Of a DNA stretch of 64,000 nt, positions 3,001-40,957 are shown piece by piece. The stretch is taken from positions 3,286,001-3,350,000 of the forward strand of contig NC_079237.1 of assembly GCF_028502605.1 (NCBI RefSeq). Direction: 5' to 3'. The notes beneath the pieces were generated by a model that worked only from the letters and a program-made list of their open reading frames with translations, was not told the origin of the DNA and searched no databases. A program made the translations under genes and the position numbers. The first letter of the stretch is position 1. Every line of letters begins with the position of its first letter. The DNA is from Trichoderma breve. Taxonomy: Eukaryota; Ascomycota; Sordariomycetes; Hypocreales; Hypocreaceae.

Positions 3001-3439
3001 TGTTGCTTTCGATGAGCTTAATGACTTCTTTGATCTGGCCTTGCGCAAGACCTGTGGGGGAGTCTAGTCCATGCTTCTTGATCCATTTCTGAGTCTCATC
3101 ATTAGCCTCAGTAAAGGCTCGAGCCCAGAGGTCTGAAACTTTAGTCGACGGCGGTGGTTGGGATTTTGTCGTCCGTAAAGGCGGGGTTAGATGAAATTTC
3201 GCCAGTTGAGATTCTACGAGAGGCGCAGATAGTCTTTGGCGCGAAGAACGCTCTGATGTATGAGAAAGCAGAGGGTCTCTCGATAGCTCTAGAGATGCAT
3301 CTGAATGAGACGATGTACTGGCTCTCGCAGATGTAGAAATTCGACGACCGCTTGATGCTCGAGATGAAGACCTAGGCCTTCCAAACCAATTGCGCGGCTT
3401 TAAAAAATCCCTCTTTCTGCTTTTCACCTCTGTGCCCAT
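1..3439 (-). CDS. NACHT-ankyrin NOD-like receptor (5' part, continues past left edge)
   Basis: Fungal NLR-type protein, probably a cytosolic sensor in non-self recognition or programmed cell death (family knowledge; ligand unknown). Exons read on the minus strand: 3439-2825, 2730-2091, 2032-1426, and 1353 to the window edge, giving about 1071 residues so far. Order of domains: a Ser/Arg-rich N-terminus; a region like the NACHT N-terminal domain (begins near SDLWARAF, residue about 110); a P-loop GTVGTGKT near residue 418 that is assembled only after the 2033-2090 intron is removed; Walker B TTIILDALDE near 520-529; the FRWVYLQ motif at the 1354-1425 splice junction; then a winged-helix-like region and ankyrin repeats (for example LLEHGADPNLP) that run off position 1. 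The start is the ATG at 3439; the frame upstream has no better ATG. All junctions keep frame. The missing C-terminus should hold more ankyrin repeats. Confidence 0.85.
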
Positions 3440-4314: not shown

Positions 4315-7129
4315 CTAGACGTAACTATTAGCAGTCAACCACTCTCTCAACTTTTTGTGATCTCGCTGAAGATATCTCGCTCTACCCTTGATTCTATCCT
4401 TAGATACCTCCAACGCGCGGGCAAAAGCAGTAGTGTCTTTATCTTTAAAGAAGCTCTCAATTTCTATCAATGTTGATGCATCAGTCAACGTCTGAAGCAC
4501 TGCGCCAACTATGCGGTCCAAAAGACTAGAATTCTTTCCAATCTTCGTCTCAATGCTTGACCAATGGGTCTTCATCCAAGTCCATTGCAAGAGGCGAGTT
4601 GCAGGATTGTCGGCGAGAGATGTCGCTAGGAATTGCATATCACCAGGAGGCACGATCTTTGCCCTCGTAGAATTTGAAGGCGCTTCAAAAAGCATAGGCA
4701 TTACATCTGATTCGACAAGTTGCAAGTCTTTTGTGTAGCCGAGCGCCGTAAGACATATTTCTTTCCCGTCAATAGTGGTCGTATTTTCCCATTCCTCAAT
4801 GATGAAGGGAACAGCGTCCACAGGATTTGTTTCTACAGCAATTCGGAAGACAATGGCTCGAAGGTTTGCAGGAATAGGATCAGAAATGGGATTATATTTG
4901 TAAGCAACAAACCGGCGATTTGCTTCTGTTGAGATACTATGCAAATGTCAGATGGAAAGTTGGACAAGAAAGAAGATATAAAATTGTGGACTCACTTTGG
5001 ATGCCCGCTTGCCCCAGCTGCGAGAAGCAATTGACTTCGCGTCAACGTTGTATTATAGTCTTCATCTGGTCGAGTATCCCATCCACAGAGCGCAAGATTC
5101 TTTTCAATTAGCTGAAGGATGAATTTATCCAACCCTCTTTTAATGCCATCGTCATGATAAAAGATAGAGCGGACAACGTTGACGGAGTCCAAGACCTGTT
5201 TAATCACTCGGTAGTGCGTCTCGTTTCCAAATGCTTTCAACAAATCCAACATCGCTGCTGTGTTGCTCAGGCCTGCAAACGCCATATCCGCAGCCGAGCT
5301 GACGATGAAGATCTTGTCCTCGGTGCTGAGTCGATTTAGCTGAGAAGCTATAATGGATAGGCGCTCGGGAGGATAATTAACTTTATAAAATCCAATCGCA
5401 TTGGCATTGATGATATAAAATTCCTTGTCGATGTTGAAAGTATCTTGTTTTTGAGCTAGAGTTGTGTTTGATGTGTTTTGCTTTTCAGAGACATCTTTGA
5501 GAGATAGTGGAAGCCACCAGACGGTTGTATCATCTTCGGGTTTTACATCACCTGTTGAGAGAAACCTGGTTTGTCTCACGGTGATTTGGTTCCCGTTTTC
5601 TTCTATAGATGCAACAGGGAAGCCCATATTCTGAATCCACGGCTGCACAAAATCCCTTACTTCCACCTTGGAAACCTCAGATAGTGCGTCCCATAAGTTG
5701 TCTGTGACTGCATTACCATATGCATGTTGCTTGAGGTATAGTGATATACCATCAAGGAACGTATTTAAGCCGATATGACTCGCAAGCATACGAATAATAG
5801 ACGCGCCTTTGCGATAACTGATTAGATCGAAAAGCTGAGATACAGCTGAAACATTTCCAACCTGAACTAGAATTGGATGCGAGGCACGAATAGAATCTGC
5901 CTCGAATGCTGACTGCATCCCCTCATTAACGAATCGGGTCCAAAATTCCCAGTCTGGATGGACGTGAGCAACGGCCAGCCAACCTGCCCAAGTAGCAAAT
6001 CCCTCGTTAAGCCACAGATCATCCCACCAATCCATGGTAACCAAGTTGCCGAACCACTGATGAGCGAGTTCGTGAGCCACAACGTACGCGATGCGATCTC
6101 GGAATCTCTCTTCGGAGGTTTGCTCATCAAACAAGATTGCACTGACACGATATGTCACCAAACCCCAGTTTTCCATGGCACCGCTAGAAAACTCGTGTAC
6201 TGCCAAGATGTCTGACTTGGGAAGAGGGTAATCAGTGCCAAATATTTCGCTGAAATAGTCAATGAACTTGGTTGCGTGTTGTAAAGCCCATTGAGTTTGG
6301 TGCTTTAATCCTCTGGTTGTGTAAACCCGGACAGGCAGCGGACGTCCTGAGTATAGACGGTCTGTAAATGCTTCGGCGTATTCAAAATCGCCAACTGCCC
6401 ATGCTAGTAGATAGGTACTCATAATGGGAGAGCGCTCGAAAGTAACAAGCACTCGGTTTTGTTTGTCGACCACAGGGGTGATCTTCTTGACAGGCATATT
6501 ACTTAGTGCAACTTGATCTCCGGGTATTTCAATGGCCAGATCAAAGGGGGACTTTAGATTCGGCTCGTCAAAGCAAGGCAAAGCCATTCGTGCATACCCA
6601 GGCTCAAAGAAGGTGCTGAGCATATAGTGAGAGGCATCAGAGCCGAGTGTGGAAGCAGCGGCAGGAGTAGCAGGTGTGTATTTTGACCGATAAAAGCCCG
6701 TCATGTCATGACGGATTTTGCCAGTAAAGCTCAATGATAATTTTGATGGCTTGGAAACAGGTGCTTCTTCTTTGAAAGTTATCGTTGCTTGTTGTACTTG
6801 ATCATCGTGGGCAATCGATATGGCTTCAGAGATTGTAGAGTCGTAGGATAGTGTTGTTTTGTTAATTTCGAGATCCAAGGCATTGAGTACCACCTTGGTT
6901 GTGGGTAAAGTGAATTCTCCGTTGATTCTATATTTCTTATTAGCCTTCAAATGTTTGCTTTGATCAACGCATCGAAGACTGCAACGATATTGTCTTCTCC
7001 TTGACGCCGAGACTGGAAGCCTTACTCTACAAATCCCGTATAAGTCCATGTGTTGTAGTCCAAATTGGTAATAATGAGAGAATAGTTAGAAGGCCTCAGA
7101 GAGACAGGCAAAATATCTCGATTAGCCAT
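4315..7129 (-). CDS. M1 family zinc aminopeptidase (Aap1/Ape2-like)
   Basis: Cleaves N-terminal amino acids from peptides; the absence of a signal peptide suggests a cytosolic enzyme. Exons: 7129-7026, 6927-4996, 4936-4315, encoding 885 residues, the normal length for this family. The true start is in a short first exon (begins MANRDILPVSLRPSNYSL), joined through a 98-bp intron to INGEFTLPTTK; both junctions keep frame. Catalytic features are complete: the exopeptidase motif GAMENWG, the zinc motif HELAHQW with the second Glu in WLNEGFATW, and a C-terminal ERAP1-like helical domain. The gene is transcribed toward the NACHT-ankyrin gene. Function is confident; the natural substrate is not known. 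Confidence 0.93.
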
Positions 7130-7843
7130 AGCTTAGAGTTGTATAAATTAAGATGATGATGGCGGAGTTCCTCAGCAGTTTATTGCTGCAAAGTTGGTAA
7201 ATAGTAGTCTCAGTAGCCGAGCCCGATGCAAAAGCCCACTGCCTGAATTAAGAGGGAAAAAAATACTCTCTCTTAATTTATATCTAAAGAGTCATTGCCT
7301 AGTAACTACATTTACTGTATGATCTATACTCGCAATTCGTAGGTCCATCATTGATTTCCCATATAGGTAACTCCAAGTTTGAGCCGAAGCCGAAGCCGGA
7401 GCCGGAGCCGAAACTCGTATCTAAATCTTGATCTTGTTAGAACATGTAAATGTCGTGCCCCCGACTTGCGCCCTCTTACTACTATCATTTACGCCCTCTT
7501 CATACACATGCGCATATTTGAGCAAAATTCTGCTTCATAACTGGTCAGTTGAAGATGAAACGATGTCATGATACACGAAGCCATCAAGGTTCCGCGATGA
7601 CTCGAACTTTGTCATCTTTAGTTTCGGCTTGACCGCGGATCAGACTTGATGAATTCACACGAACCTGTTGCTAACATGCTGTCAACCGTGAATCACAAAA
7701 GTCATGATAATAAAAGCTAGCACGGCAAAATTGCCGCTGTGATATTACAGGACTATTTTTAGTGAAAGATGAAGTATTTAAGACGGCCGCAAGCGGTGCT
7801 CATTTCTGGGCGCCCATCACAGTAATTAATTCAATCTTGTACA
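7130..7843. other. Divergent intergenic region between aminopeptidase and aminotransferase
   Basis: Contains the promoters of two genes that point away from each other. A short hexanucleotide run lies at 7383-7412. No coding capacity recognised. Confidence 0.5.
7383..7412. repeat. Hexanucleotide microsatellite (GCCGAA/GCCGGA) x5
   Basis: Two GCCGAA units, two GCCGGA units and one more GCCGAA follow each other without interruption. Confidence 0.8.
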
Positions 7844-9428
7844 ATGTTGTCTAAACGAATCTCTCGAACATCTGCCGATCTGGATGCACCTTGGAGACAT
7901 ACTCCTCGGTTCCAGAAGTATGACCCAGTAGCGAACACGGATGGAGTCATCTCCTTTGCAACTGCAGAAAATGCAAGTCTTCCGTCCAACAATAGCTACA
8001 CAAAGCTAATATTTGCCTTAGGCTCTTGTTACTAAGGAACTCGAGGAGTTTGCAAACTCCGGTGTCAGTATAAGAGTCTTCATGATGTCTACCAACATAT
8101 TGTACTAAAGCAATATAGAACATACACATCCCAGGAGCTGCTTTTATGTATGGATACAGTACTGCGGGTGGACAACGTTTCCCCAAAGCTCTAGCAACAC
8201 ACCTCAACGAGTATTTTCATCCATATAAGCCACTGACTGGAGATGATATATTGGCAACTGGAACAGCAACGGCGCTTCATGAAATTCTGGCTTTCAGCTT
8301 TGGCGATCCTGGTGATGGTATTCTCGTTAGCCGGCCATGTTATGGACGGTTTGAGCTAGACTTTGGCAACAAAGCAGAGATGCCTGTGGTCTGGGCGGAT
8401 TCCAATGCGGAAAATTCCTTTAAGCCGGAAGTTGTAACTCACCTTGAAGAGAGGCTGCTTCAATCAAACGCAGCTGGGACCAAGGTTAAGGCCCTCCTTA
8501 TTGTCAATCCGCATAACCCTCTTGGTATATGCCACCAATATCCGGAAGCTGGAATACGTGCTGACATTGGATAGGACGCTGTTATCCAAGAGAAACCCTT
8601 GTTGCTTTAATGGCGTTTTGCCAGAAGCACCGCATACACTTCATCAGCGACGAGGTTTATGCCTCCACTGTATTCGACTCAGGAGAGCCCGATACCCACC
8701 CCTTTACATCCGTGCTCTCCATTGATCCAACTGGACTTATTGATCAAGATCTTGTTCACGTCGAATATGGCATGGCCAAAGATTTTGGTTCCGCTGGCCT
8801 ACGTGTTGGCGCCCTGATTACCCGCAATGCCGCCCTCCAGAAAGGATTTCAAAGCATTATTCGCTTCCACAGCCCCTCTGGCATGTCGGTCACCGTGGCA
8901 AGCGCTATGCTTGAAGACAGAGAGTGGTGCAGAAAGTTTCTAGAAACGGCACAGAGCCGCATTTCTGAGGCCTTCAGACTAGTCACGACTGAACTGTCTA
9001 ATATCGGTATTAAGCATCTGCGCAGCACGAATGCTGGTCTCTTCCTGTGGATTGACTTGTCTTCTTATCTTCCACCAGAGAGCTCTGGCCTGTCTAAATC
9101 TGAAAGAGAGTTTTCTCTGGCTCAGAAACTGCTTGATGGTGGAGTTTTTCTTCATCCTGGTGAGGAGCATGCTCTTGAAGCTGGCTGGTTTAGACTAGTC
9201 TATACACATGATCCTCGAACAGTACGCGAAGGAGTTAAACGGTATGTTATCTCACCATCCTACCAATATACAGCCTCTCTGACTGATAAAGGATTCACTC
9301 TGTTCTTGATAAACTCTCATGGTAGTCTCGGAGCTGGCGTCCAGTCGACTCTTAATTACCTATTAGGGGAGTCAAGTTATTTTAGCTATGATCATCGTGA
9401 AATTAGCGATTTTCTCATTACTCACTAG
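7844..9428 (+). CDS. PLP-dependent class I/II aminotransferase (ACC synthase-like)
   Basis: Fold-type I PLP enzyme resembling fungal 1-aminocyclopropane-1-carboxylate synthase-like proteins. Exons: 7844-7972, 8022-8063, 8119-8524, 8575-9428. The first intron (7973-8021) has a GC donor in the context GCAAGT; it alone gives the family sequence ENALVTKELEEFAN. The second intron (8064-8118) restores IPGAAFMYGYSTAGG, and the third restores NPHNPLGRCYPRE. Seen motifs: YGYSTAGG, the cofactor-binding NPHNPLG, SDEVYA, and the Schiff-base lysine in MAKDFGSAGLRVG. The C-terminus is unsure: translation runs straight to 9428, but an in-frame intron 9242-9325 (GTATGT..TAG) would remove 28 codons after VREGVKR. 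True ACC synthase activity cannot be told from alanine- or aromatic-transaminase activity here. Confidence 0.85.
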
Positions 9429-10134
9429 CTCTGTTTGGTTATAAATGCTCCTATCGTTTAGTTCTAGTATAGTACGGCTGTTGGTATGAGGCAAGATGAT
9501 GAGGGGATTGAAGGAACTCAATACGATCAGCAATAATGATTACATGCAATCTTCCCACCCTCCTAAGCAGACTTTGTTTTCCTCATTTTCTTAACTAAGG
9601 TGGCTCGATCAATGTCTTTACTATGCGTACAAAGGCTTGGATTTCTGAGACGGGAACGCCATACTTGTATTTCAGCGTTGTATCCAGGTTAAACCTGGCA
9701 ACCGACTTTTGGGAAATGCTTCTTATAAGCGATTCGGTGCGTGCTAAAACCGGCAACGATTACGAAACACATATTATTCAGCAAGTTATTTCATCACGGA
9801 AGTGATTAGGAATCAGGTCACTGTGCCTAAGCGTTTTGCATATAATTCGCCTTCAAAACTAACTCCGGATGGCGAAAGGGGGTCTAGGCGGCCGCTTATT
9901 TCCGATATTAGATCTCGATGATGCGGTTTGTTTAAACACGTAGACTAGTAGGGATTGAACTAGCATGCTGAGAAAAGTGAAATGGGGTAGGGGCGGATTT
10001 GAACATTATTCGCAAAGGAAGCAGTCTTGCTGGCAGATATGATAGTTCATATAATACTATGTGCAGTTGTTCATACATAAATACACTCTCATAGAGAGAA
10101 TATTCCAAAACTACTACCAAGTGTTCATTCACAC
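9429..10134. other. Intergenic, convergent genes; nothing recognised
   Basis: Shared 3' region of the aminotransferase and the minus-strand dehydrogenase. A 60-codon open frame at 9623-9805 has no family features. Confidence 0.5.
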
Positions 10135-24606: not shown

Positions 24607-25812
24607 TTAATCATGGCCCCATTTATCCTTTCCTGTGACTGGAGGTCCATGCGGTGGTATTGGAAAACCGTGTTCGTAATCCAATATCGTCTCTGCAAGT
24701 CCTGGCGCAGGCTTCCAGCTGGGGTTTGGTGTCTGTCTCGGCACGCCTCCATTGTCGTGCTCTTCCACCCATTCCAGCAATTTAGTGAAATTTCGACACT
24801 TGTGCATGGTATTAAAGTCAGGATGGGGAGTGTGGTGAGTGAGAACCCAGTTGGATGTGACGGGCGTAACATCACTCTCACACATTATGACTTGGCGGAG
24901 ATAATCGATGCAGTGGTCTAGAGCAAGACCCAGAAAGAAGCCAGTTATTAGCATGAATCCATGGTTAACACAGACGAGTTAGACTCACCAACGTGGTTGA
25001 AGAATAGCTTATTCGTTACTTCAAACTCAATTGGCAGGTTTTCGGGCCTTGAATAATAATCTGCATAGATGACTTTTCGGATAAAGTTCTACTCAACGGG
25101 TCAGCCAATTTCCAATGCCAACAGATCCAGAGAATTTAATACCAGGCAGTGGAGCTGGTGAAAAACCTCAATCTCGACCATAATTCCACCACCTTGTTCT
25201 TTGGGATAAGGTATGCCCGAATTTGTTTTATTCAACTCTGCGCGATACTTTTCAGGCATTGAGAGCGGATGGACTTGTGATGTAAAATAAGCACAAAATA
25301 CGGCATTAGAAGTAATGATGAGTTTGGATGCTTACTTTTACCAACGCGAGTCCAAGTTTCATCAAGTTCTGGTCGAGGGTGCCCTTTGTACACATTTTCG
25401 GCGTCAAGCTCTGCCTCAAACTGATAATCGTAATATTCTACTGCCTCAAGCAATGGCGCTATGCTTGGGTCAGCTTGGTCAAACTTGACTATAAAATTAT
25501 GGACAACTTACAATAGCTTGAAGTCATGCGGACGCACTCCAACTCAGTGCATCCTGGTTTCAGCACATACCCTATGGCTGCACCCACAAGTACACTGCAT
25601 ATAATCTGTAGACTGGTTATCGCCCATCTCCATACTGTTGTCGAACTGGGTTTCCATTTTCTTGGTCGCCGGGGTGCATCGTCTTCTCCAATCCACGTGG
25701 ATGTGGAATCAAGCTCATCTTCAGGCCTATCGTAATAGCCCAGAAGCTTTTTGTTCTCGGCCTCAAGGCTTGAGCGCCCTTTCTCTGCACTCGACGCTGA
25801 CCCAAGATCCAT
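24607..25812 (-). CDS. UstYa-like (DUF3328) oxidase, RiPP cyclisation candidate
   Basis: Five exons: 25812-25512, 25458-25336, 25273-25143, 25088-24989, 24917-24607, encoding 321 residues; every junction keeps frame. A single membrane helix (residues about 62-84, WAITSLQIICSVLVGAAIGYVL) follows a charged cytosolic N-terminus. The lumenal part has the family landmarks YKGHPRPELDETWTRVG, HQLHC at 180-184 and HVDHC at 217-221 followed by IDYLRQVIMC. In known clusters (ustiloxin, phomopsin, asperipin, cyclochlorotine) proteins with the double HxxHC motif carry out oxidative cyclisation or hydroxylation of peptides. The 80-residue C-terminal tail rich in Pro and Asn is longer than usual. The gene shares its strand with the repeat precursor 1.2 kb upstream. 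The assignment to the family is strong; its action on that precursor is inference. Confidence 0.92.
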
Positions 25813-26974
25813 CTTGAAAATACAAAATAGACTAAATGTAAGGTCGCTAATAGCCCATATGGATGCGAAATCTGAAATATGTATGGTATTCCAGAGTTTG
25901 GTGATGCCCGCATGCAGGCTAGACTTTTGACTCGAGGCCGAGGGACAAGGTCCGAGACCAATGATGTAACCCCAAGCTCGGAATTGAGAGACATGAAGAC
26001 CGAAGTACAGCACCTATCCGAACCAAGACACATACAGACATCTCGGACCGCTTTCAAACATGCGAGAATCAAGACGCCATGGAGATCGGAAACTATGTGT
26101 ACCAAACGTTCAATTACGAGGCTCGGATTTGAGAGCTGAGAGTCGCTCATTGCGCATCGGTAGGAGAATCGCGGCGACTCGGCCAACGGGACTGTGCTGC
26201 ACCCCCCTGCATAAAAGTTATCTATTAGTGAAACACAAAGGTTCAGCCGTCATTTGCAAGACCAAGATCTGGCCGCTTGCAATTACATAGGTTCATGAAT
26301 GCACCTAACTTAGACGGAAGCATATCTCCCCGGAGAAGTCATAGTCAATAGTTAAAGGTGTAAACTTTTTTGGCGTAGAGAAATAATCGCGAATAATCGG
26401 ATTTAGCACAATGATTTGCTTCTCAGAGTGCAAGTATTACAACGACCGTGGCAAGCGAAAGGACGGTGTATTTGGTGACTGTAATTGCACTGGTTCCATA
26501 ATTTATCACTCAACTTCGTAATGCAAGACTTTAAACATAAGTCAAAGGCTTGGTAACGCATACTTTTGTACACAGCGATAACTAGAATAGCAGGCACTTT
26601 AAGCATGTCTAAGATTGGGAAATGGTAATGTCCATAAAGAGAAAAGAAATGGCAAAAGAACCATGACCTCATGAGGCGTGCTTGTAGTATAGCCAGTAGA
26701 GTTTAACGCTTAATCAATACATTGAGGCATGAGATATTGGCCTGTCAATCAATAGAACAGCTCCTAAGGACGCGGCAAAGGTAATAAATTTCACGTATAT
26801 TGCCTATGGGAGAGCTAATGAGGGCGAATTGAACTATCCTCACATGTCCTACATACGGCACCATATTGGTCATTATCAACCCCCCTGCTCGCCAGTTCAA
26901 AGCCTGAACTAAATGCCCGTATTGATACTTTTGGCTTCCAGCGTCAACATGAGGTAAATATCATCGAATTCACA
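25813..26974. other. Intergenic; promoter of the UstYa-like gene
   Basis: About 1.16 kb with one CGGACCG palindrome at 26044-26050. Short open frames on both strands here show no family features. Confidence 0.5.
26044..26050. promoter_or_regulatory. CGGWCCG palindrome, candidate Zn2Cys6 site (UstYa-like promoter)
   Basis: The palindrome CGGACCG is 232 bp upstream of the UstYa-like ATG and matches sites in the other promoters of the block. Confidence 0.45.
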
Positions 26975-27710
26975 CTAGTCGTAGTGTTGCTTGTCAGGGA
27001 CAACAGTATCTTTAGTACGCTTATCGTAGTGCTGCTTGTCGGGGACCACAGTGTCTTCGGTACGCTTGTCATAGTGTTGCTTGTCTGGGACTACAGTGTC
27101 CTCAGTTCGCTTGTCGTAGTGCTGCTTATCGGGAACAACTGTATCCTTATTGCGCTTGTCATAATGTTGTTTATCAGGGACGACAGTGTCTTCAGTTCGC
27201 TTGTCGTAATGTTGCTTATCGGGCACGACAGTGTCCTCGGTACGCCTGTCATAATGCTGCTTATCCGGGACAACAGTGTCTTCGTTACGTCTGTCATAAT
27301 GCTGCTTATCAGGCACAACAGTGTCCTTGTTACGTCTGTCATAGTGCTGTTTATCAGGAACCACGGTATCCTTGTTGCGCTTATCATAATGCTGTTTGTC
27401 AGGAACAACGGTATCCTTGTTGCGCTTATCATAATGCTGTTTGTCAGGAACAACGGTGTCTTCGTGGCGTTTGTCGTAATGCTGTTTATCGGGAACAACT
27501 GTATCTTCATGACGCTTATCGTAATGTTGCTTGTCAGGAACAACGGTATCCTCGGAGCGAGAGACAATATCAAAGCTATATTATACGGATTAGCGTTTGA
27601 TAATAATATGTAGAGAGAATATGTTTTGCCTACGGTTGTGCCATTGGAAGCGCGAGCGCCATGGCAGTGGAGGCCAAAGCGGCCATAGCAAAAGCTTTAG
27701 TGTACCGCAT
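26975..27710 (-). CDS. Secreted repeat precursor peptide (Kex2-processed, dikaritin-type RiPP candidate)
   Basis: Exons 27710-27634 and 27575-26975 encode 225 residues. Residues 1-20 form a signal peptide (MRYTKAFAMAALASTAMALA); a short spacer LPMAQPFDIVSR follows. Then come 13 tandem units of 15 residues: two variable residues (SE, HE, NK, NE, TE or TK), the invariant DTVVPDKQHYD, and a dibasic KR (nine units) or RR (units 5-7); the last unit ends at ..HYD and the stop. This is the layout of Kex2-processed precursors such as UstA and PhomA: each unit would be freed in the Golgi and trimmed. The predicted product is a 13-mer or shorter peptide containing one Tyr, the residue joined in known dikaritins. 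Core sequence is unlike the known YAIG, YVIPID or FYYTGY cores. A TATA box lies about 120 bp upstream. Whether the peptide is modified is inference. Confidence 0.92.
26978..27556 (-). repeat. 13 tandem 45-bp coding repeats of the precursor
   Basis: Twelve complete 45-bp units and a final 39-bp unit. The protein is nearly invariant, but the DNA varies at synonymous positions: Val-Val is written with eight different codon pairs, and Lys, Gln, His, Tyr and Asp codons also alternate. A long antisense open frame (26984-27613) is a by-product of this repetition. Confidence 0.95.
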
Positions 27711-27826
27711 AATGCAAACACGTTATCAAACTTTCGTTAAAAACTTTGTTCAAGATATTGGTTTAGATGCGATGTTATCGTTGTTGAGTTGCAAGAATAC
27801 TGTCCAAGCACCGCGGGGGATGGCTT

Positions 27827-27834
27827 CTTATATA
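27827..27834 (-). promoter_or_regulatory. TATA box of the precursor gene
   Basis: TATATAAG on the minus strand, about 120 bp before the ATG at 27710. Confidence 0.55.
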
Positions 27835-28204
27835 GCCTGAAAGCGACGAATCTCCCATAGTTACGTCTCAATACGATAGTTCTCAAGACATGGAACAAGA
27901 TTAGAATATTGCATCATTTGTCACAGCGAACTGACAGTAAACAGCCTCGATGTGAAGCATTTTGACGCACCGACACAGCTTCTATCGGACCCAGACAATG
28001 TCAGTACCCTTCTTTCATCGCAAATAGGCCTTTGCATTTCAGAGTCGCAGCTGAGAAGTAACGTCAAACAAAACTCAACGGACCTTCCGAGACAAGCTTG
28101 GCATCATTAGAACTTAGTATGACGAGATGTAGAAAACGACGTCGGTGGTGGAAGTCAGTTGCCGGAATAGGAAATGTCGCAGAACCTCACTCTCAGAGAT
28201 CCGA

Positions 28205-28211
28205 CGGACCG
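28205..28211. promoter_or_regulatory. CGGWCCG palindrome, candidate Zn2Cys6 site 1 (precursor/protease promoter)
   Basis: CGGACCG followed by AAGTG; the 12-bp block CGGACCGAAGTG recurs with one change at 33245. Confidence 0.5.
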
Positions 28212-28238
28212 AAGTGCAGACCCATCTAATAAAATGGA

Positions 28239-28245
28239 CGGACCG
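28239..28245. promoter_or_regulatory. CGGWCCG palindrome, candidate Zn2Cys6 site 2 (precursor/protease promoter)
   Basis: CGGACCG preceded by GA, as in site 1, and 34 bp from it. Confidence 0.5.
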
Positions 28246-28620
28246 AGCCGCTCATCCTTCGATGATGAACTTTCTTGGCGTAGGTCATTGGCAAGTACCA
28301 GTGTTATAAGCTTGACCAGTGGTAATTCGTTACCGAGGTTTGCGACGACAAGATCTGTTAGGTAGATGGCAAACTACCTCATCTCCGTTTTGTTTCGCTG
28401 CCTGTGACAACTACCGTAGGCATCTTCGCTCAGGGGATTCTACCATTGGATATTCACATAGTCACATAGAGCAGAGGAGTCGGCTACCATACTTCGCGAG
28501 TGGCTTAGCAGTTGCGCGGCAAAGCAACCACAAACGACAGCAGACTTTCAAGAGACGTGGAACAGGCACTGCACGTAATCATCCTATTGAAAATTGATTA
28601 CTTGTAATATTTGATACATA

Positions 28621-30911
28621 ATGGCCGTGAGATTGACTGTCATATCCACCATCATCGCTCATATCCTCGTGTTAGAGGCTATGGGTGCTGCAATCGATAG
28701 CTTGTCGAGTAACAAATCGGCACAGAGCAGCAAAGCCTCACTGACCAAACGTGAGATACCCGACTCTCACAGGCTACATGAGCGACAAAACTCCCACTGG
28801 GAAGGCCAATGGGAAAAACAAATCAGAGTTCCAGCTAATAGTCTGCTTCCCATGCGTATTGGTCTCGTGCAGAGTAACATTGACGAGGGAGCGCGTCGTC
28901 TACAAAAGATGTAAGCAAAATCCTAAGCCCTTCCATAATGTTCCCATTAATAACACAAGTATTAGCTCGAATCCAAACTCGCCAGATTATGGAAAGCACA
29001 TGTCTCCAGAAGAAGTAATCGAAATGTTTGCTCCGTCTGAGACTGCTTTCGATGCTGTGAGGGACTGGCTTGTTAGCGCCGGCTTTGCTGACGAGGCCAT
29101 CTCACTTTCAGCCAACAAGCAGTGGATCCAACTTGATTCAAGAGCTGAAGACGCTGAAAATGTTCTGTTTGCAGAATTTTTTGAGTATGAGCACCTTGCG
29201 TCGGGCAGCAAGACTGTCGCTGTCGAGGAGTACTATGTCCCTCTCCATCTTCGAGAGTACATAGACTACATCACTCCTGGTATCAAGCTTCAAGCCCATC
29301 CTAATAAGCTGAAGAAATTGATGCAGCGCCAAGTACAGGAGCTACAAGAGAAGCCTATGAGCAGATCCGCGCATAAGAATGTGCCATATATAAATGATGA
29401 AGATGGCAGAGGTAGCGGCAACCGCAGTACGACGCCAATACCTTTTGTCTCGGGTTCTTGCGATACAGATCTCACCATTGCTTGTATCAGAGCCCAATAC
29501 GGCATTCCCAATAATACAGTTGCCATACCTGGAAATGAGCTTGGTATTTTTGGCGGTCTGGATGAGCACTATAGCAAAGCTGATCTCGACACATTCTTTG
29601 CCACGCTTCACCCACACATACCGAATGGCACCTACCCAGAGGAAAGACTCATTGACGGCGCTATTGGCTCAGTTGAAGACGTTCCAGGATATAACCAGTC
29701 TGTTGCGGGTGTCGAAGCGGATATGGACATTGAGGCTGCCTGGCCGTTGATTTGGCCACAAGGCGTTGTTCTGTTCCAAACAGACGATCAATTCTATGAA
29801 GTTAGTCAAAAGGCACCAGACACACCATATCATGGCTTCTGGAACACTTTCTTTGATGCAATTGATGGGTCATACTGTACGTACTCAGCGTACAATGAGA
29901 CCGGTGACTGTACTAGACCAGAATGCCTTGATCCTTCGTACCCCAATCCCAATCCCGATGGATACAAGGGTCAGCTGCAATGTGGCGTATACCGCCCTAC
30001 GAATGTTATATCTATCTCTTACAGCGGCGGTGAAGCGGATCTACCTGCATCGTACTTGAGGCGACAGTGCAATGAGATTATGAAGCTCGCCTTACAAGGT
30101 GTAACTGTGGTTGAGTCATCTGGAGACTATGGCGTGGCTTCTTACCCAGAGAATCTTTTCACGAATAATGGATGTGCTGGTACCGATGGAAAAGTCTTTT
30201 ATCCTTCCGCCGATGTAAGTTGTCCTTATGTCCTGGCTGTCGGCTCCACGCAGTTCAAGAGGCTTAGGGATAGCAATACCACGTACTATGAGTCGTCTAC
30301 CTCGTACAGCGGCGGTGGATTCTCTAACTATTTCGACGCACCCGAATGGCAAACGGACGCCATCTCCTCATATTTCGATCGAGTCGCTTTAAACTTTACT
30401 AGTTACGAAAATCCTGGTGTCAACTTCAGCGATGTTGGCGATGGTGTCTACAGGGCTGGTGGCCGCGGTTACCCTGACGTATCAGCTATTGGTGAAAGAC
30501 TGGTTGCCTTCAAGAGAGGCCGGTGGGGTCATGTCGGCGGCACATCTCTCTCAGCTCCCATATGGGCGGCTGTAATCACGCTGATAAACGAGCGCCGTCT
30601 CGCTGCCAACAAAAGCACTGTTGGCTTCATCCACCCTGTCTTGGTATGGCTGTCCCAGTTCTCAGTGGTGATATTCATGGGCTAACCGATTCTAGTACGC
30701 CCATACCGAAGTCTTTGTTGATATCACGGAAGGATCTAATCCGGGGTGTAATACAACTGGTTTTCCAGCAGTCAAGGGATGGGATCCTGTCAGTGGTCTT
30801 GGGTGAGAATCTCCCTTGCAACTTAGCTTGACCTTTGGTTCATTATTTGAAGCTAACTTCAGAAGAACACCCTATTTTCCCAAATTGGTTGACTTGTTCC
30901 TCAGCCTATGA
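28621..30911 (+). CDS. Secreted S53 (sedolisin) peptidase, tripeptidyl-peptidase-like
   Basis: Exons 28621-28910, 28966-30643, 30696-30802 and 30863-30911 encode 707 residues. It starts with a hydrophobic signal segment, then a pro-domain (LLPMRIGLVQSN, SPDYGKHMSPEEV, YYVPLHLREYIDYITPGI). The catalytic domain has the Glu/Asp pair in GVEADMDIEAAWP, the oxyanion Asp region in SGDYGVASYPEN, and the nucleophile in GGTSLSAPIWAA; the Ca-binding end DITEGSNPGCNTTGFPAVKGWDPVSGLG is restored by the last two introns. Sedolisins are acid Ser-Glu-Asp proteases; many fungal ones release tripeptides. Being head-to-head with the precursor over a shared promoter, it may trim or mature peptide units (inference); general nutrition is the alternative. 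Confidence 0.92.
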
Positions 30912-31069
30912 GATCTTGCTGATAAAATGGAAGTATCACTGCAAGGAAACGGTGCTATGTTTGGGGTAAAGGTATATCCAATTGAATCAAGTGACTATGC
31001 ACTATCAACAAGAACAGACGTGATAGAACAGTAGTAATAATTAATATTTATTCATCCTATATCATTACT

Positions 31070-32930
31070 CTACCAGCCAAAACTCTCGTTATGGAACCAA
31101 ACATCTCTATCTCTCTCGACCCAGTGTGTCACTACCCGTCTCACATCAGCAGCCATTTCATCAGGGCCACATACGACAACTCCAACACGTCCACCACGGC
31201 CTTGCTGAAAAAAAGCGTTGACAATTTGCCTTATATTTGGCCGCTGAAAACTATCCACAGGGACACTCCTATCGTCCACTTTACTCTCTTTGTCGAGGCT
31301 GCTCATTTCAACATCACTCATGCTTGAAGATTCGTATGCCGAGCTGTCTGTTGATTCAAATCCACTTCTTGTGCAAAAGAGACGTAACCCACCCTCTTCT
31401 AAAATGCCGCGGTCTGCCTGAGTGGTGCACCACGCCGCTTCATTGATGTTGCGGGTTGCCCAAATCGTCTGAACCCGTAACAATGGGTTCTCTGTCCTGA
31501 TATGCTTGAACAGCGGCAGAATAAAGGTTGCACCGACGCCTCCAGCAAATAGCAGCACTCCATCGAATTCAGATCCAGAGAAGCTAGGGAAACTGGTATA
31601 ACCTCCATATGGACCGTCAAAGCTAAGAGCAACATTGGTGTCTATTGACAATGGGTTCGTAAAGCTCGAAAGCGCCTTCGTCGTCGGCCCTCTCATTTGA
31701 CGGACAATGAGCATAAACTCCTCTGCTTCTTCATCAACAGATGCTACCGTGAACGGATTGGATATAAGCTCAGAGCCAAGATATGATAACAATAAAGGAG
31801 TTTTCTTGGACCTTGACGTAGGAGGAATGCTCAGGTAGATATGCGACCCAGGGCGAGATGCGATGCTCTTCATCATTTTTTCTGAGCCTTTTACTTTGAC
31901 TTTGACAAGATCAGTGCTGATGACGGCTTCTACAGCACAGAAGCTCGTTACCCTGGTATATCGGCGGATACCAAGATCAACAATAGCCACTGCTAAGGCT
32001 TCAGCCATGTAGATCCTCCCATGAGGAACATGGAACCAGACAATAAAAGGAAGAGCCAGGGCGACTGTAATATGGATGATAAAGAATACCCGATACGAAA
32101 GCCGACGTATCAGTTTCAACGAGGTAGTGTTGAGTAATGTCATGCAAAACAACCCACTCATGCCCAGGGCTGGAACAACGCGAAGAAAAGCTGCTGGCAA
32201 TCCCCCGACTTGAAAGTAGTAGTTGAGATATAAAACTCCGTGAAACATAATGAATAAGTATGTTATACGACCAAGAGTTTGATGCCATCGATTCAAATGT
32301 TCATGCGATGTGCGTAAAATGAGCGCAACTGGATTGAACCATTTTAGTGATAGCAGGTAGAGCATGGGTAGTTGAGATATGCCAACAATGCCAAATCGTC
32401 GAGCCAGATGATGATAGTCTAAGAAGATTTCTTTAGCAGATATTCTTCAATCCACGATTGCGCCGACTATCCTTACCTGTTCCTGTGTCCTTTGTGCAGA
32501 GAAATAGCAACCAAGCCGCCCAGACACCACCAAATATCAACTGATCTCTTTGACACAAGGTCAGGCCGGCGAATTCGACGTTGTCGCTAAGCCACCAAGT
32601 AAAACGGCGCCATAAAGCCAACGGTGAACTTGCAACAGACGCTTCATAAAACGCAACGGCAGATGTTGTTGCCTCAGCATCGTAAGGTGCTTGTTTGTCA
32701 GTCAATTTACCTAGCCTCCATCGTACAAGTCTCACTAAGAGCAAACCAAGGATAGGTACAAGGGGTGATAAATGTGCGTATAGACCGAACTGATCGTTCA
32801 AAATACGGCGTTTGTGTCTATCAGCCTCAGAGAGGGTAACGAATTGATAGGGCCAATCCATCGCCTGGCCGTAGTCATACAACCGTTCTTTGCTAGCTGG
32901 CAGTGAAAGGTAGATTGAAGATGATTCCAT
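31070..32930 (-). CDS. Ferric reductase / NADPH oxidase family transmembrane flavoprotein
   Basis: Exons 32930-32477 and 32418-31070 encode 600 residues; the 58-bp intron joins TKDTGT to DYHHLARRFGI. Several membrane helices include the heme-binding core TSHEHLNRWHQTLGRI..FHGVLYL and FFIIHITVALALPFIVWFHVPHG. The cytosolic half has the FAD motif NPFTVAS, the NAD(P) motif LLFAGGVGATFILPLF and a C-terminal VVVCGPDEMAADV. Reduces Fe(III)/Cu(II) or another acceptor across the membrane. The start at 32930 (MESSSIYLSL) is the first in-frame ATG after a stop; an unseen short first exon is possible. It shares a 518-bp divergent promoter with the second HxxHC protein, so it may supply reduced metal to the UstY-type oxidases (speculation). 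Confidence 0.88.
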
Positions 32931-33214
32931 TCTAGAAAGGGCCTCTAAGTCGAATGGTTGGGATAGAAAGAAGACAGCTAGCCATTTTGCAGCGAAAGGT
33001 CGGTGTTTTCCAGAGGCCGCTTTGTGAGACACTTGGTTCCTGGTCCGAGTAAGTGTACATCTGCATTCATACGTCTATGAAGTCGGATGGAGAGGAGGCG
33101 TTAGCCAATTCATCGCAGCTTAATTGATCATTATTGACGCAATGTGAGAATAGAGGCCGCAAAATAACGTGCATGTGGAACATTTCTCGGAATAGTGAGG
33201 TAGAGAATTGGATC

Positions 33215-33221
33215 CGGTCCG
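33215..33221. promoter_or_regulatory. CGGWCCG palindrome, candidate Zn2Cys6 site 1 (reductase/HxxHC promoter)
   Basis: CGGTCCG followed by a further half site GTCCGAG. Confidence 0.5.
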
Positions 33222-33244
33222 AGTCCGAGCACATCACACCAAGT

Positions 33245-33251
33245 CGGTCCG
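33245..33251. promoter_or_regulatory. CGGWCCG palindrome, candidate Zn2Cys6 site 2 (reductase/HxxHC promoter)
   Basis: CGGTCCGAAGTG differs by only one base from the block at 28205. Confidence 0.5.
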
Positions 33252-33448
33252 AAGTGAAACAACAAATCGTCATTGTGCAGCATATGAATACGCAGTATCA
33301 TCTTACTCAATTCAATTTGACACGCAGAGCTTAATCTAAAAGATGCTTATACCATAGTTCCATGGAGATATGTGAGCTTGCTGCCCTATGAATCACCAAT
33401 TCTAATCTTGAATCGAAGAATAATTGTCATTCAGAGAGAAATTTCAAT

Positions 33449-34186
33449 ATGTGGCCTCTCAAAGTTAAGACTGCTTATGAACGCCTTCAAGGAAGCGAGG
33501 TTTCTTCAGCCTCAAACTCGTTCACTGATGGCGATGCTGAGAAATTAGACGGGCCTCATCCGTCCAATCCTCACCCTCGCAGCATGTTCCAGTACTTCTA
33601 CGACGCACTCCGTACATCAATCGGTTTATTTTGCCTCTGGATAGTTCTAGTGACAGCATGGAGAACCACTTTTCACTCTACTCCTCGTGTTATTAGATAT
33701 GAGAAACAAACGCTAGAGTGCGGAAACACCACAGAAGAAGCGGAAGCGCGCGGCTGTGCATTTGACTTGCTTTCACACAACTGGGTAGCAAAGCAATGCA
33801 TGGATTCCCTGACAGAATCGGAGTACCGCGAATACGTCAGCAGCCATGATCGCAAAATGGGACCCTATCCTTACTTTCTCGACCCCGAGGGAAAGAATCG
33901 CATCGTTGGCGAACGTGCCTTTGCACTTCTTGCCAACGGCCCAACTCTCGCTGACCAGCACGTCTATACTACTCGAGAAGAACACCTGGCACATTGCAAA
34001 TATCTCCTTCGGCGTACTCATCGAGCTGCCGAGGGTAAAGTGCAGCTCAATGACGAGAATAAGCAGTTTTGGCATGCAGCGCACTGCTTGGAAGAGCTTA
34101 GCAATCCAAATAAGAAGCCAATGGACGAGTTGAATGAGGGCTTTTATGTTGGGTTTGCACCTTGTACCATTGACGTACCAGTATAA
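33449..34186 (+). CDS. Single-pass membrane protein with two HxxHC motifs (divergent UstY-type)
   Basis: Intronless, 245 residues. A cytosolic N-terminus of about 55 residues precedes one membrane helix (about 57-72, SIGLFCLWIVLVTAW). The lumenal part has a Cys-rich start (LECGNTTEEAEARGCAFDLLSHNWVAKQCMDSLTESEY, given here as separate motifs CGNTTEEAEARGCAFD and QCMDSLTESEY), then HLAHC at 179-183 and HAAHC at 209-213. Topology, the 30-residue motif spacing and the paired HxxHC match the diagnostic features of UstYa/UstYb, though overall sequence looks different from the protein at 24607-25812. A widespread fungal family of uncharacterised proteins has the same plan. I infer a second oxidase-type subunit or partner of the locus. 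Confidence 0.75.
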   Translation: MWPLKVKTAYERLQGSEVSSASNSFTDGDAEKLDGPHPSNPHPRSMFQYFYDALRTSIGLFCLWIVLVTAWRTTFHSTPRVIRYEKQTLECGNTTEEAEARGCAFDLLSHNWVAKQCMDSLTESEYREYVSSHDRKMGPYPYFLDPEGKNRIVGERAFALLANGPTLADQHVYTTREEHLAHCKYLLRRTHRAAEGKVQLNDENKQFWHAAHCLEELSNPNKKPMDELNEGFYVGFAPCTIDVPV

Positions 34187-34314
34187 GAAGATTGACCTCG
34201 ATCCAGATACGAGGGGGTAGTGAAGGATAGATGAGGCAGCAAATATTTTCGTTGACGAGTAGAGAATGCATCAATTTCATTTCTGACTGATCTTAACCAT
34301 TTCTCATTCCACTA

Positions 34315-36961
34315 CTAATGAGTATCGTGATTCTCTTTTACCAACTGGTGCACAATCCTCACAATTTCTGTAACCTCTTCTTGGGGACCGTCGATGTCGC
34401 CAATCGCCATACGTCCAAAGAACCCAACCGCCATGGAAAGGTAAGAAAGATCTTTACTATTTTTACCATCGCAAATTGTACTAGTCGCTAGTTTACAAGA
34501 AGCGACGCGAATTAGTTGATAAAATGACCTGGAAATTTGTTAGTCACGCTGAACATTAGAAAGTGCGTCGTAGTACCAAACATACAGATCCAAACGTACG
34601 TCTGCCACGGTGAACTGATGGCTAGCCTCAAGGAGCTTTTTCACTGCCGAAGTTTGTTGCTGATCCCCAAATGATGGCCACATAATGACATCAGTAACAG
34701 CTAGAGACTCTGTGGATGTCTGCTTTGCATATACTGCAAGAAGAATCTCATAGTACAGACAGAAAATGTGGAGCTTTATTCTTCGTTCTTGGGATCTCAT
34801 GGTGTTCAAGCCAACTATTTGGCCATCTACTAATTGAAGTTCCGATGGCAGTCGTTGCATCCATTTACGGAGTTGCTCTTCGAGGTCAAAGATGTAACTC
34901 GAGCCTTGGCTTTGCAGTGCTTTTTGGCCGTAGAACTCTTGTAAGATGAACGCGCAGAGACTTGCATGGTGGCACAATATTGACAACCAATCAACTGAGG
35001 CCGAATGCCCTTCTGGTTTTGGCGGTTCATGATCGATAAAGTCGTGATTAAGAAGCTATGTGTTTGTCAGTGCTGGAAAGTTCGTAACATGGTCATATGA
35101 AGAAATGACCACAGACTGACAGGAAAAGTCTCTGTCCGAAGACAAAAGCGCTGCTCCATGGCGTATAAAAACCACATGGCCTTCTTCACTCTTCTCCTGT
35201 CTTCTGGTGTAGCACACAATGCATCTATTGAGCTGCTTCTGTTCAAGCGCATTATTTGTGAATATCGAATGCAGTCAAACAAGAAACTACGGGCTTCTCT
35301 CGATTCAATGAGTAGCCCAAAGAAAGTCTAAGGCAGCCGAGAGTTTAGTATATGAGCTAGCCAGTCATGAAGTATTAGAAATACTATACCATTGCGACGA
35401 GAGCCTTTATTCCATTATTAGTGTTCCATCTAGTGAAATACCTTGACAGGGAAACATCCAATCTTACCTGTAAACTCTGAACAGAGAAGATATCATTCAA
35501 CAGCTGATCTTTAAACTTCAAGGCCTCATTAAAGTGAAAGATAGGATTGTGTTGGAGTTCTGGTAGTCTTTCACATCGGCCTTCGCATTGTAAAAAATGT
35601 GTTCCAAGCGCAAGCACCATATGGGCAAGGGCTTTTGTGGGCGTCGGGCACGGTAACTGACCCAGAGCATCGTGAACGGCGCTTTCCAGTGACGCCCGAT
35701 CTAAAAATGCAGAGACACTAGAGCTGTTGTTGGCAACACAATCCTTATGCGGATAATTTAGTGGTCGACATCTTACCCTAGTTGATCACTCAAACACACT
35801 ATGTTTAACATGTTAGCCATGAACTTGTTTTCAACAAGCGAGAATAAGACAGTTACTGATGGTACATACCGTCGACAAAATCGAACACGAATCTTCGTTG
35901 AATGGTAAGATTGTCTACATTCATCTCTAGGCCACCAAAGATTTCGGGAGGATAGATTGTGACATGTTTCGTCATCATTTTCTCCAATGTATGAAGAAGA
36001 TGGTCGTTTTTATCCAGTCGCCGTTGATTACAATGTTGCTCAATGCTCTCCAGTATCGTGTCCTTTATCAAACTGTTTTGTCTAGTTTTGACTTGGGATT
36101 CTTTCAGCCTCAATCTCATTTCTACTATCTCACTCTAGTTGTATTAGGAGGAGCTTTTACGTACCTTTAAACATACAACCGTTCTATTGTTATAAAAACA
36201 AGTTAATATGCCTCCCTTCCAATTATACTTAAGATAAATACGAATAGACCAGCTTACCAAAGGGTTGGCATCATTCAATTCTGACATGGACTGGTCTCCA
36301 GGAGATGTCGCTCTTACCGAACGGCCTAGTTTGGGGCTTGTATATGAGTTTGACAAAAGTTGTGTGGATGGCATCTTTGAATCCACAAATAATTGCTCGT
36401 TAAATGCAAATTGTCCCTTTGTATCGAATAGGTTATGGCAATGAGGTATAGTGGTGTCGCTCGTGCCATTAGAAGGAACCGCATTCAAGTTGAGAAACTC
36501 AGCCGGCTCTAGATGATTCGTGGAGTAAGGAACAACACAGGGTGCAAAAGTATCTCCAAGATATTCTGGTTCGAGAAAAGACAAGCCATTTTCGCTAAAT
36601 GGAGTATTGTCAAATGGCGATTCCATCTGCTGTGAGATTGGCGTCTCGGGCGACGCCTCATCGATGGACGGTCGTGATTGATGCGTCGGTACATATTTGC
36701 AATCAAAGCCAAGCCTCTATATTCTGGTGGTTAGTCTCATATCGAAAACACGGCTAGATCGGAGACCAAGACCTCGCATTCACTACATAGCTTTTTTCCA
36801 TCACCTGCATTCAGGTTAGAACGATCATCAGACTATTAAATAGCCAGTAGGATAAACAGACATCGAACCTTGCGAGCTCTACAACGATTGCAAGCACCTC
36901 GCCGTCTTGTAATTCGCCGTGACCCCCCTAGTATGCCTTTGCTGGAATCGGCCACTACCAT
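34315..36961 (-). CDS. Zn2Cys6 transcription factor with fungal-specific middle domain (cluster regulator candidate)
   Basis: Eleven exons: 36961-36862, 36804-36773, 36716-36258, 36183-36165, 36124-35870, 35798-35777, 35717-35468, 35404-35390, 35327-35121, 35055-34577, 34528-34315. They sum to 683 residues with every junction in frame. The zinc cluster CNRCRARKVRCDGKKLCSEC..C (Cx2Cx6Cx5Cx2Cx6C) is built from the first three exons. The middle domain shows LRLKESQVKTRQNSL, ALVAMTFFGLLIESREARSF, FLYAMEQRFCLRTETFPLLNHDFID, and the end AVGFFGRMAIGDIDGP. Ten introns, with exons of 15, 19 and 22 nt, are many for a fungal gene. It lies at the right end of the RiPP-like locus, beside a gene desert, which suggests a pathway-specific regulator (inference). 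Confidence 0.88.
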
Positions 36962-40486: not shown

Positions 40487-40957
40487 ATGGTGAACATCGA
40501 CACAAGCAGAATCTACGTCCTTAAGAACAGCTTTACGGCTGCAGCTAAAATACTTGCCCTATCAGGAAATGGCAACTCTCTCTCTATGGTAGACGCAACC
40601 AATGTTACTTCCAACAGCCTCTGGTTCCTGACTCCGACGAACTCAGCTGGCTACTATCGCCTACACACCCTCACCGATGGAGTTAAGCAGGCACTTGATG
40701 TCGTTAATGACAATGGAGTGAATAGCGTCAACCTTCATTTTGCCAATACTGGAGAATACAGTGGCCAATATTGGAGATTCGACCAGTGGAACACGAATCC
40801 TGCCTATCCGTACAGGCTGAGCAACAGCTTCACGGGGACAGGCCAACACCTAGACGTGTATTCTGACACTTATCAAGCTCATCTGGCTGGCGGCGATTAC
40901 TCCGGGCAGCATTGGGCTCTGGTTTCTGCGAACACTGTCGTCGTGACCCAGTCTTGA
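40487..40957 (+). CDS. Ricin-B-type (beta-trefoil) lectin-like protein, cytosolic
   Basis: Intronless, 156 residues, without a signal peptide. It has the trefoil signs RIYVLKNSFTAAAKILAL, SNSLWFLTP, YRLHTLTDGVKQALDV, GQYWRFDQW, YRLSNSFTGTGQHLDV and GQHWALVS: three repeats, each with a Q-x-W-like core. Such fungal proteins bind galactose-type sugars and some defend against fungus-eating animals; others bind wall glycans. There is no attached enzymatic chain, so it is a lectin domain only. A TATA-like box lies about 85 bp upstream. It is isolated next to the gene desert. Confidence 0.85.
   Translation: MVNIDTSRIYVLKNSFTAAAKILALSGNGNSLSMVDATNVTSNSLWFLTPTNSAGYYRLHTLTDGVKQALDVVNDNGVNSVNLHFANTGEYSGQYWRFDQWNTNPAYPYRLSNSFTGTGQHLDVYSDTYQAHLAGGDYSGQHWALVSANTVVVTQS

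What the first reader, a model, noticed from the sequence alone, without database searches (positions are those of the whole stretch)
24607..36961. Candidate new dikaritin-type RiPP gene cluster
Seen: a secreted repeat precursor with Kex2-type sites, a UstYa-like protein with both HxxHC motifs, a second membrane protein with two HxxHC motifs, an S53 protease, a ferric-reductase-type flavoprotein and a Zn2Cys6 regulator, all within 12.4 kb and without unrelated genes between. Known: UstA/PhomA-type precursors plus DUF3328 oxidases define fungal dikaritin RiPPs (ustiloxin, phomopsin, asperipin, epichloecyclins). Inference: these genes make a cyclic peptide from the core DTVVPDKQHYD. No tyrosinase, P450 or methyltransferase is present, so this would be a minimal pathway.
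Basis: partly seen in the sequence, partly recalled or inferred. Interest (0 to 1): 0.92.

Follow-up and report, generated by a model that had tools for sequence, protein, structure and literature searches.

The report
Trichoderma dikaritin-type peptide gene cluster
A Trichoderma fungus carries a compact set of genes that very probably cuts a repetitive secreted protein into many copies of one small peptide and oxidises them; it belongs to a known kind of fungal peptide pathway, with unusual helper genes and a partner enzyme pair shared by distantly related fungi.

Summary
The window comes from Trichoderma breve (its UstYa protein is identical to T069G_09915, on a contig of the same length). 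It encodes a secreted precursor with 13 Kex2-bounded repeats of DTVVPDKQHYD; the core copies differ only at silent third codon positions. Beside it lie a bona fide UstYa (PF11807), a second one-helix HxxHC protein ("Y2"), an S53 protease, a ferric-reductase-type flavoprotein and a Zn2Cys6 regulator. A dikaritin-type RiPP cluster is the best reading; product, expression and enzyme activity are untested.

New evidence: UstYa and Y2 have orthologs on contigs of equal length in five other fungi, with consecutive locus tags in Penicillium nucicola. Y2 fails Pfam's UstYa model but is a probable remote relative; 5 of 6 Y2 paralogs in this genome lie within 4 kb of a UstYa exon. Nine candidate KEP-UstYa loci were found here, so this cluster is one of several. 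CGGACC is enriched upstream of five of the six genes. S53 and the reductase lie beside no other UstYa locus here, so their role is inferred. "Minimal" is not unprecedented (asperipin-2a has four genes).

The parts
26975..27710 (-). KEP-type precursor gene: exons 27634-27710 and 26975-27575; signal-peptide-like leader, then 13 x DTVVPDKQHYD with KR/RR sites
   Evidence: one hit in the whole genome; no homolog with E up to 10 among 66 candidates in the protein database
24607..25812 (-). UstYa-family (PF11807/DUF3328) oxidase, exons 25512-25812, 25336-25458, 25143-25273, 24989-25088, 24607-24917; 321 aa, one helix, HQLHC + HVDHC
   Evidence: identical to P0028 = T069G_09915 Trichoderma breve
33449..34186 (+). 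Y2: second one-helix protein with two HxxHC motifs, probable remote UstYa relative, 245 aa, intronless
   Evidence: (no Pfam)
28621..30911 (+). S53 (sedolisin) protease, exons 28621-28910, 28966-30643, 30696-30802, 30863-30911; 707 aa; ExxxD, SGD and GTSxSxP motifs present; best solved relative tripeptidyl-peptidase 1
31070..32930 (-). ferric-reductase-type membrane flavoprotein, exons 32477-32930 and 31070-32418, 600 aa
34540..36961 (-). Zn2Cys6 transcription factor, 623 aa in a hand-spliced 10-exon model
25949..26049 (.). two CGGACC motifs upstream of UstYa
27986..28244 (.). four CGGACC motifs in the divergent precursor/S53 promoter region
33042..33251 (.). three CGGACC motifs in the divergent reductase/Y2 promoter region

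Best explanation
A dikaritin-type RiPP gene cluster of Trichoderma breve. The precursor enters the secretory pathway and the housekeeping kexin cuts it after KR/RR into about 13 copies of X-[E/K]-DTVVPDKQHYD. UstYa, anchored by one helix, oxidises the peptide, most likely through its single Tyr (an ether or C-C link to a nearby side chain such as Val, by analogy with ustiloxin and phomopsin), with Y2 acting as its dedicated partner. The S53 protease probably trims the released peptides. The reductase may supply reduced metal or electrons to the HxxHC enzymes. The Zn2Cys6 protein probably acts through CGGACC sites. Shown here: gene content, coding selection on the repeats, conserved UstYa-Y2 linkage, shared promoter motif. 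Inferred: every enzymatic step, the roles of S53 and the reductase, the cyclic product, and what binds the motif.
For: Precursor form and purely synonymous divergence of the core copies. UstYa at PF11807 E=1.6e-53 with both HxxHC motifs. UstYa and Y2 orthologs sit on contigs of equal length in T. harzianum (locus tags 006902/006898), Penicillium nucicola (008251/008252), Coniochaeta ligniaria, Xylariales sp. AK1849 and Cercospora zeae-maydis. Y2 paralogs: 5 of 6 within 3.7 kb of a UstYa exon, P=5.6e-10 for random placement. Candidate KEP repeats at 8 of 8 UstYa loci read over 10 kb or more, target included, against none but one low-scoring artefact in 50.5 kb of the window outside the cluster; two of the eight (L003, L037) had shown a KEP before I fetched the longer stretch. 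CGGACC: 9 of 20 window sites fall in the four upstream regions I defined; top 6-mer, P=2.1e-7 among 1537 tested; permutation p=2.0e-4.
Against: No transcript, mass or enzyme data. No relative of the precursor found, so its linkage to UstYa cannot be tested across species. The 10 other S53 and 16 other reductase loci found are all more than 100 kb from any UstYa exon. No transporter, tyrosinase or methyltransferase among the six genes. None of the nine motif sites lies in the 639 bp upstream of the regulator gene. 7 of the 13 named species in the Y2 list show no close UstYa in the UstYa list, and two species with the close UstYa (Cladobotryum mycophilum, Cercospora berteroae) show no Y2. UstYa proteins also work outside RiPP pathways (cyclochlorotine).
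Confidence: 0.74

Rival explanations
1. Only precursor, UstYa and Y2 form the pathway; S53, reductase and regulator are neighbours with other jobs (general secreted peptidase, metal uptake).
For: None of the other 10 S53 or 16 ferric-reductase loci found lies near a UstYa locus; in Penicillium nucicola UstYa and Y2 have consecutive locus tags.
Against: The CGGACC motif lies in both divergent promoter regions, precursor/S53 and reductase/Y2; T. harzianum has exactly three locus tags between UstYa and Y2, as expected if precursor, S53 and reductase are all kept (the intervening genes were not seen).
Confidence: 0.3
2. The precursor yields a linear, unmodified signalling peptide (hormone- or pheromone-like), and the UstYa pair is there by chance or acts on something else.
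For: 6120 of 7878 KEPs have no DUF3328 gene nearby; the core has a single Tyr and no Ile.
Against: Almost no pheromone KEP has a DUF3328 gene nearby (three exceptions); no Pfam match, MF_alpha included; UstYa, Y2 and KEP recur together in this genome.
Confidence: 0.13
3. UstYa/Y2 oxidise the peptide without closing a ring (hydroxylation, desaturation).
For: DUF3328 proteins are described as catalysing other reactions such as hydroxylation and chlorination.
Against: The UstYa-dependent RiPPs described in the passages read (ustiloxin, phomopsin, asperipin-2a) are cyclised.
Confidence: 0.2

Closest known systems
Asperipin-2a (apr) cluster, Aspergillus flavus
   Same: Repeat precursor, UstYa homolog, no tyrosinase; small cluster
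   Different: Core FYYTGY with several Tyr; transporter and isoflavone-reductase genes instead of S53, ferric reductase and Y2
Ustiloxin and phomopsin clusters (classical dikaritins)
   Same: Signal peptide plus KR-bounded repeats, UstYa proteins; zinc-finger regulators in dikaritin clusters
   Different: No tyrosinase, methyltransferase or S41 peptidase here; second HxxHC protein is Y2, outside PF11807; core unrelated to YAIG/YVIP
Epichloecyclin (gigA), Epichloe
   Same: Repetitive precursor, cyclised at Tyr
   Different: Different core (inferred: not compared letter by letter); gene content of that cluster not compared here
KEP catalogue of Umemura 2020
   Same: This is a KEP with a UstYa gene within 15 genes, as for 1758 of 7878
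   Different: Whether this core is one of its 838 types was not testable; the strings PDKQ and HYDK are not in the main text

Membership tests
Dikaritin-type RiPP cluster | Secreted precursor with repeated cores between Kex2 sites | tested here: met
   13 repeats, KR/RR, hydrophobic leader
Dikaritin-type RiPP cluster | DUF3328/UstYa protein with two HxxHC motifs (class-defining by the later definition) | tested here: met
   PF11807 E=1.6e-53; HQLHC, HVDHC
Dikaritin-type RiPP cluster | Tyrosinase and methyltransferase (Ding et al. definition as reported) | tested here: not met
   absent from the six genes; also not listed among the four asperipin-2a genes
Dikaritin-type RiPP cluster | Transporter or peptidase gene (same definition) | tested here: inconclusive
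   no transporter; an S53, not S41, peptidase is present
Dikaritin-type RiPP cluster | Oxidatively cross-linked peptide product | not testable with these tools
   no metabolite data
UstYa family, for Y2 | PF11807 match above the curated cut-off | tested here: not met
   this Y2 has no match; 11 of 30 aligned family members match weakly, best E=0.04
UstYa family, for Y2 | N-terminal helix and two HxxHC motifs | tested here: met
   four His and one Cys of the two motifs invariant in 30 of 30 aligned members, the other Cys in 90% or more
UstYa family, for Y2 | Profile homology to UstYa | tested here: inconclusive
   hhalign 80% probability, E=1.4e-5 over 71 columns aligning both motifs; 73%, 3e-5 with this Y2 and five paralogs only
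Alpha-pheromone precursor | MF_alpha Pfam domain, no DUF3328 neighbour | tested here: not met
   no Pfam match; UstYa is the next identified gene
Tripeptidyl-peptidase (sedolisin), for S53 | Glu/Asp/Ser triad in ExxxD and GxSxxxP, tripeptidyl-peptidase specificity | tested here: inconclusive
   motifs at 347, 482 and 621, best PDB match tripeptidyl-peptidase 1; specificity (tripeptidyl-peptidase or Arg-specific aorsin) not testable

The most novel reading that the evidence does not exclude
UstYa and Y2 form an obligate two-protein HxxHC oxidase that is a conserved module across Pezizomycotina, with Y2 a new, unmodelled branch of the UstYa superfamily that marks RiPP loci. In this cluster a dedicated ferric-reductase-type flavoprotein feeds the enzyme, and an S53 tripeptidyl-peptidase removes the variable X-[E/K]-D tripeptide, stopping before TVV-Pro, to give TVVPDKQHYD: a candidate for the unknown core-trimming step of dikaritins.
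Probability: 0.22. Interest if true: 0.72.

Novelty: new member of a known kind. Interest (0 to 1): 0.5.

Why it matters
This UstYa has no relative in the PDB by sequence (E up to 1), and the passages read give no account of UstYa partners of the Y2 type or of an electron source; the proteases that trim the ustiloxin core are described as unknown (a 2019 review). A compact cluster with a conserved UstYa-Y2 pair, one protease and one reductase makes these questions testable by single gene deletions in a fungus. The Y2 family is a possible genome-mining handle for fungal RiPP loci that Pfam-based searches miss.

Tried and rejected
Precursor homolog search: 66 candidates, none with E up to 10. 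That is not a phmmer filter artefact, since the precursor scores 474 bits against itself and two randomly altered copies still score over 300. It may mean the gene is unannotated elsewhere or outside the tool's length limits.

Co-divergence of UstYa and Y2: Mantel r=0.92 over seven species, but this rests on the near-identical Trichoderma pair and on partial Cercospora sequences. Without them r=0.11 over five species, so I do not use it.

Rows dropped before alignments: the Y2 alignment A2 leaves out three partial hits of 27 (P0017, P0024, P0027) and one of the six paralogs (C5:4083615, frame broken in the ORF list); the UstYa alignment A3 uses 36 of 45 hits.

Published trail: exact core string, 0 papers. 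UstYa with Trichoderma, 12 papers listed: PMC7099791 mined Trichoderma RiPPs by another method (Results section read); a table in PMC10416523 gives 38 and 37 for 'UstYa-like' in T. harzianum PAR3 (passage). UstY with ferric reductase: two papers in the listing, neither opened. PMC10989895 included T. breve T069 in an antiSMASH survey with 181 fungal-RiPP clusters of Hypocreaceae; the passages seen do not describe this one. A search for UstYa with copper listed 15 of 764 papers, all but PMC12048977 off topic by title. The dikaritin search listed 17 of 18 papers; of these I read passages of PMC12048977, PMC6514808, PMC9233826 and PMC7329392 and the Results of PMC7099791. Supplementary tables were not available.

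Structure prediction of Y2 (and once of UstYa) could not be run: the machine was busy each time.

The rule that sedolisin tripeptidyl-peptidases avoid Pro at P1 or P1' is recalled; the passages seen did not state it.
Full report
Where it is. The window lies in a 38.5 Mb genome of nine contigs. Its UstYa protein is identical (321 residues) to database protein P0028, T069G_09915 of Trichoderma breve, whose longest contig, 4,070,011 bases, has exactly the length of this contig. A cellobiohydrolase fragment nearest to 2YOK/2Y9N agrees with the Trichoderma harzianum group (that these entries are T. harzianum Cel7A is recalled).

The precursor. A 225-residue protein with a hydrophobic N-terminus is encoded on the minus strand in two exons (27634-27710, 26975-27575). 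It holds 13 copies of DTVVPDKQHYD, each preceded by two variable residues (S/H/N/T then E/K); KR or RR separates the copies and the last copy ends the protein. The 11 core residues are identical in all 13 copies although their DNA is only 81% identical on average: all 11 third codon positions vary, no first or second position does, and the 78 pairs of copies show 483 synonymous and no non-synonymous codon differences. So the peptide, not the DNA, is under selection. A DNA search found the precursor once in the genome, and no relative was found in the protein database.

The oxidases. UstYa is a normal member of PF11807 (E=1.6e-53) with one helix (65-83) and HQLHC/HVDHC at 180 and 217. My first splice model carried 10 extra residues and was the one used; the corrected model is given in parts. 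Y2, 33449-34186, has one helix (53-71) and HLAHC/HAAHC at 179 and 209 but no Pfam match. In an alignment of 30 Y2-family proteins the four His and the second Cys of the motifs are invariant, and the first Cys is kept in 90% or more. The Y2 and UstYa profiles align over 71 columns with both motifs in register (80%, E=1.4e-5; 73%, E=3e-5 with this Y2 and five paralogs only). Eleven of the 30 match PF11807 weakly (best 0.04; this Y2 itself does not), more members than for any of the nine other families listed. I read Y2 as a distant branch of UstYa, not proven.

Conservation. The searches gave 27 relatives of Y2 (E up to 0.001) and 45 of UstYa (E up to 1e-10). The four species outside Trichoderma with near-full-length copies of both, Coniochaeta ligniaria, Xylariales sp. 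AK1849, Penicillium nucicola and Ascochyta rabiei, show 60-67% identity to UstYa and 62-63% to Y2; by recalled classification they are Sordario-, Eurotio- and Dothideomycetes. The database gives only the length of the longest contig; these are equal for UstYa and Y2 in T. harzianum (1,319,222), P. nucicola (2,215,110), C. ligniaria (2,829,473), Xylariales sp. AK1849 (1,279,651) and Cercospora zeae-maydis (137,031, partial proteins), so I take them to be linked; in A. rabiei the two come from different assemblies. Locus tags are consecutive in P. nucicola and four apart in T. harzianum, matching the order here with three genes between. Against this, only 6 of 13 named species in the Y2 list also appear with the close UstYa, and Cladobotryum mycophilum and Cercospora berteroae have the close UstYa without a listed Y2. 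The search is word-limited, and no gene context in those genomes was read.

The same genome. PF11807 gives 46 exon matches in 18 places. Y2 has six paralogs; five lie 1.1-3.6 kb from a UstYa exon and one does not (C6:887024), P=5.6e-10 under random placement. I scanned for tandem amino-acid repeats with dibasic sites. All 8 UstYa loci seen over 10 kb or more, the target included, hold such a gene; of the other ten, nine were seen over only about 3.2-5.3 kb, one of them with such a gene, and one was not read. Two of the eight had shown their repeat gene before I fetched the longer stretch. Examples are AGDEAWKEANLGKR, DKLQNLFYVPAGAEGETPEKR and TNDYPKYGKFGEFEAVNNEKR. The six Y2 loci with a UstYa gene, target included, all have a KEP; the lone Y2 has neither within about 5 kb. 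A control scan of 50.5 kb of this window outside the cluster gave one low-scoring artefact. These KEPs are candidates from repeats in open frames; I built no gene models for them.

One regulon? I noticed CGGACC by eye, then scanned all 6-mers. It is the most enriched in the four upstream regions I defined (9 of 20 window sites in 3.2 kb, P=2.1e-7 before and about 3e-4 after correction for 1537 words). Permutation of the intervals gives p=2.0e-4, not independent of that choice. The nine sites lie upstream of UstYa (2), between precursor and S53 (4) and between reductase and Y2 (3); the 639 bp upstream of the regulator have none. Five 10-kb stretches at other UstYa loci hold 13 sites in 50 kb, whole stretches counted, so there is no sign of the same density there. 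CGG half-sites suit a Zn2Cys6 protein (recalled), but binding is not shown.

Protease, reductase and borders. The S53 gene keeps ExxxD, SGD and GTSxSxP and is nearest to tripeptidyl-peptidase 1 among solved structures. Fungal S53 enzymes include both tripeptidyl-peptidases and Arg-specific aorsins (passages). A tripeptidyl-peptidase would remove X-[E/K]-D and might halt at TVV-Pro; an aorsin could cut at KR. Against the first, the Asp it would remove is invariant. The reductase has Ferric_reduct, FAD and NAD domains. The 10 other S53 and 16 other reductase loci found are all more than 100 kb from any UstYa exon, so neither is a general part of such clusters in this fungus. Eight flanking ORFs were tested: a shikimate-kinase-like protein and a GNAT acetyltransferase lie next on the left, a weak ricin-B-like lectin and a short-chain dehydrogenase on the right, a mitochondrial carrier and an amidohydrolase further left, and two matched nothing. 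The rest of the window was not put through a family search.

Against what is known. Papers were read as passages unless noted. KEPs with DUF3328 neighbours are common (1758 of 7878, PMC7329392). Dikaritins are now defined by the DUF3328 protein rather than tyrosinase and methyltransferase (PMC12048977), and the putative asperipin-2a cluster has only four genes (PMC6514808). By that definition this is a dikaritin-type cluster; by the older one it lacks tyrosinase and methyltransferase. What seems new is the Y2 partner and its conservation, and the S53 and reductase next to the precursor. I found no mention of these in what I saw from the searches; those cover open papers only and most of the listed papers were not opened.

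Verdict. The cyclic product and the accessory roles are untested. It is a new member of a known kind, with a partner protein that deserves work.

Noticed in passing
L002, L043, L045, L046, L047, L049, L050, L051 (genome G000): Eight further candidate Kex2-repeat precursor genes beside UstYa genes in T. breve, with different cores, e.g. CNIPWTKNYGEYDEKR, AGDEAWKEANLGKR, and an HH-containing PHHTEAQIAAKE type. The fungus looks rich in such peptides.
   Followed up: partly
G000 C6:887024-887491 (L048): A Y2-family gene with no UstYa match within 700 kb and no repeat precursor within about 5 kb.
   Followed up: partly
L042 about 2093-3226: A large ORF that looks like a cytochrome P450 close to the C6:3.2 Mb UstYa/Y2/KEP locus (by eye, no family search).
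   Followed up: no
L045 about 6508-9828: ORFs that look like a methyltransferase and a major-facilitator transporter beside the C2:7.1 Mb UstYa/Y2/KEP locus (by eye).
   Followed up: no
L047 4931-6535 and L049 4843-6255: Similar-looking membrane acyltransferase-type ORFs in two UstYa/KEP loci, possible shared tailoring gene (by eye).
   Followed up: no
window 40487-40957: Small ricin-B-like lectin ORF, below Pfam's cut-off, right of the cluster.
   Followed up: no
window 56569-58344 (-): Very Ser/Thr-rich 591-residue ORF, perhaps a cell-surface mucin-like protein (by eye).
   Followed up: no
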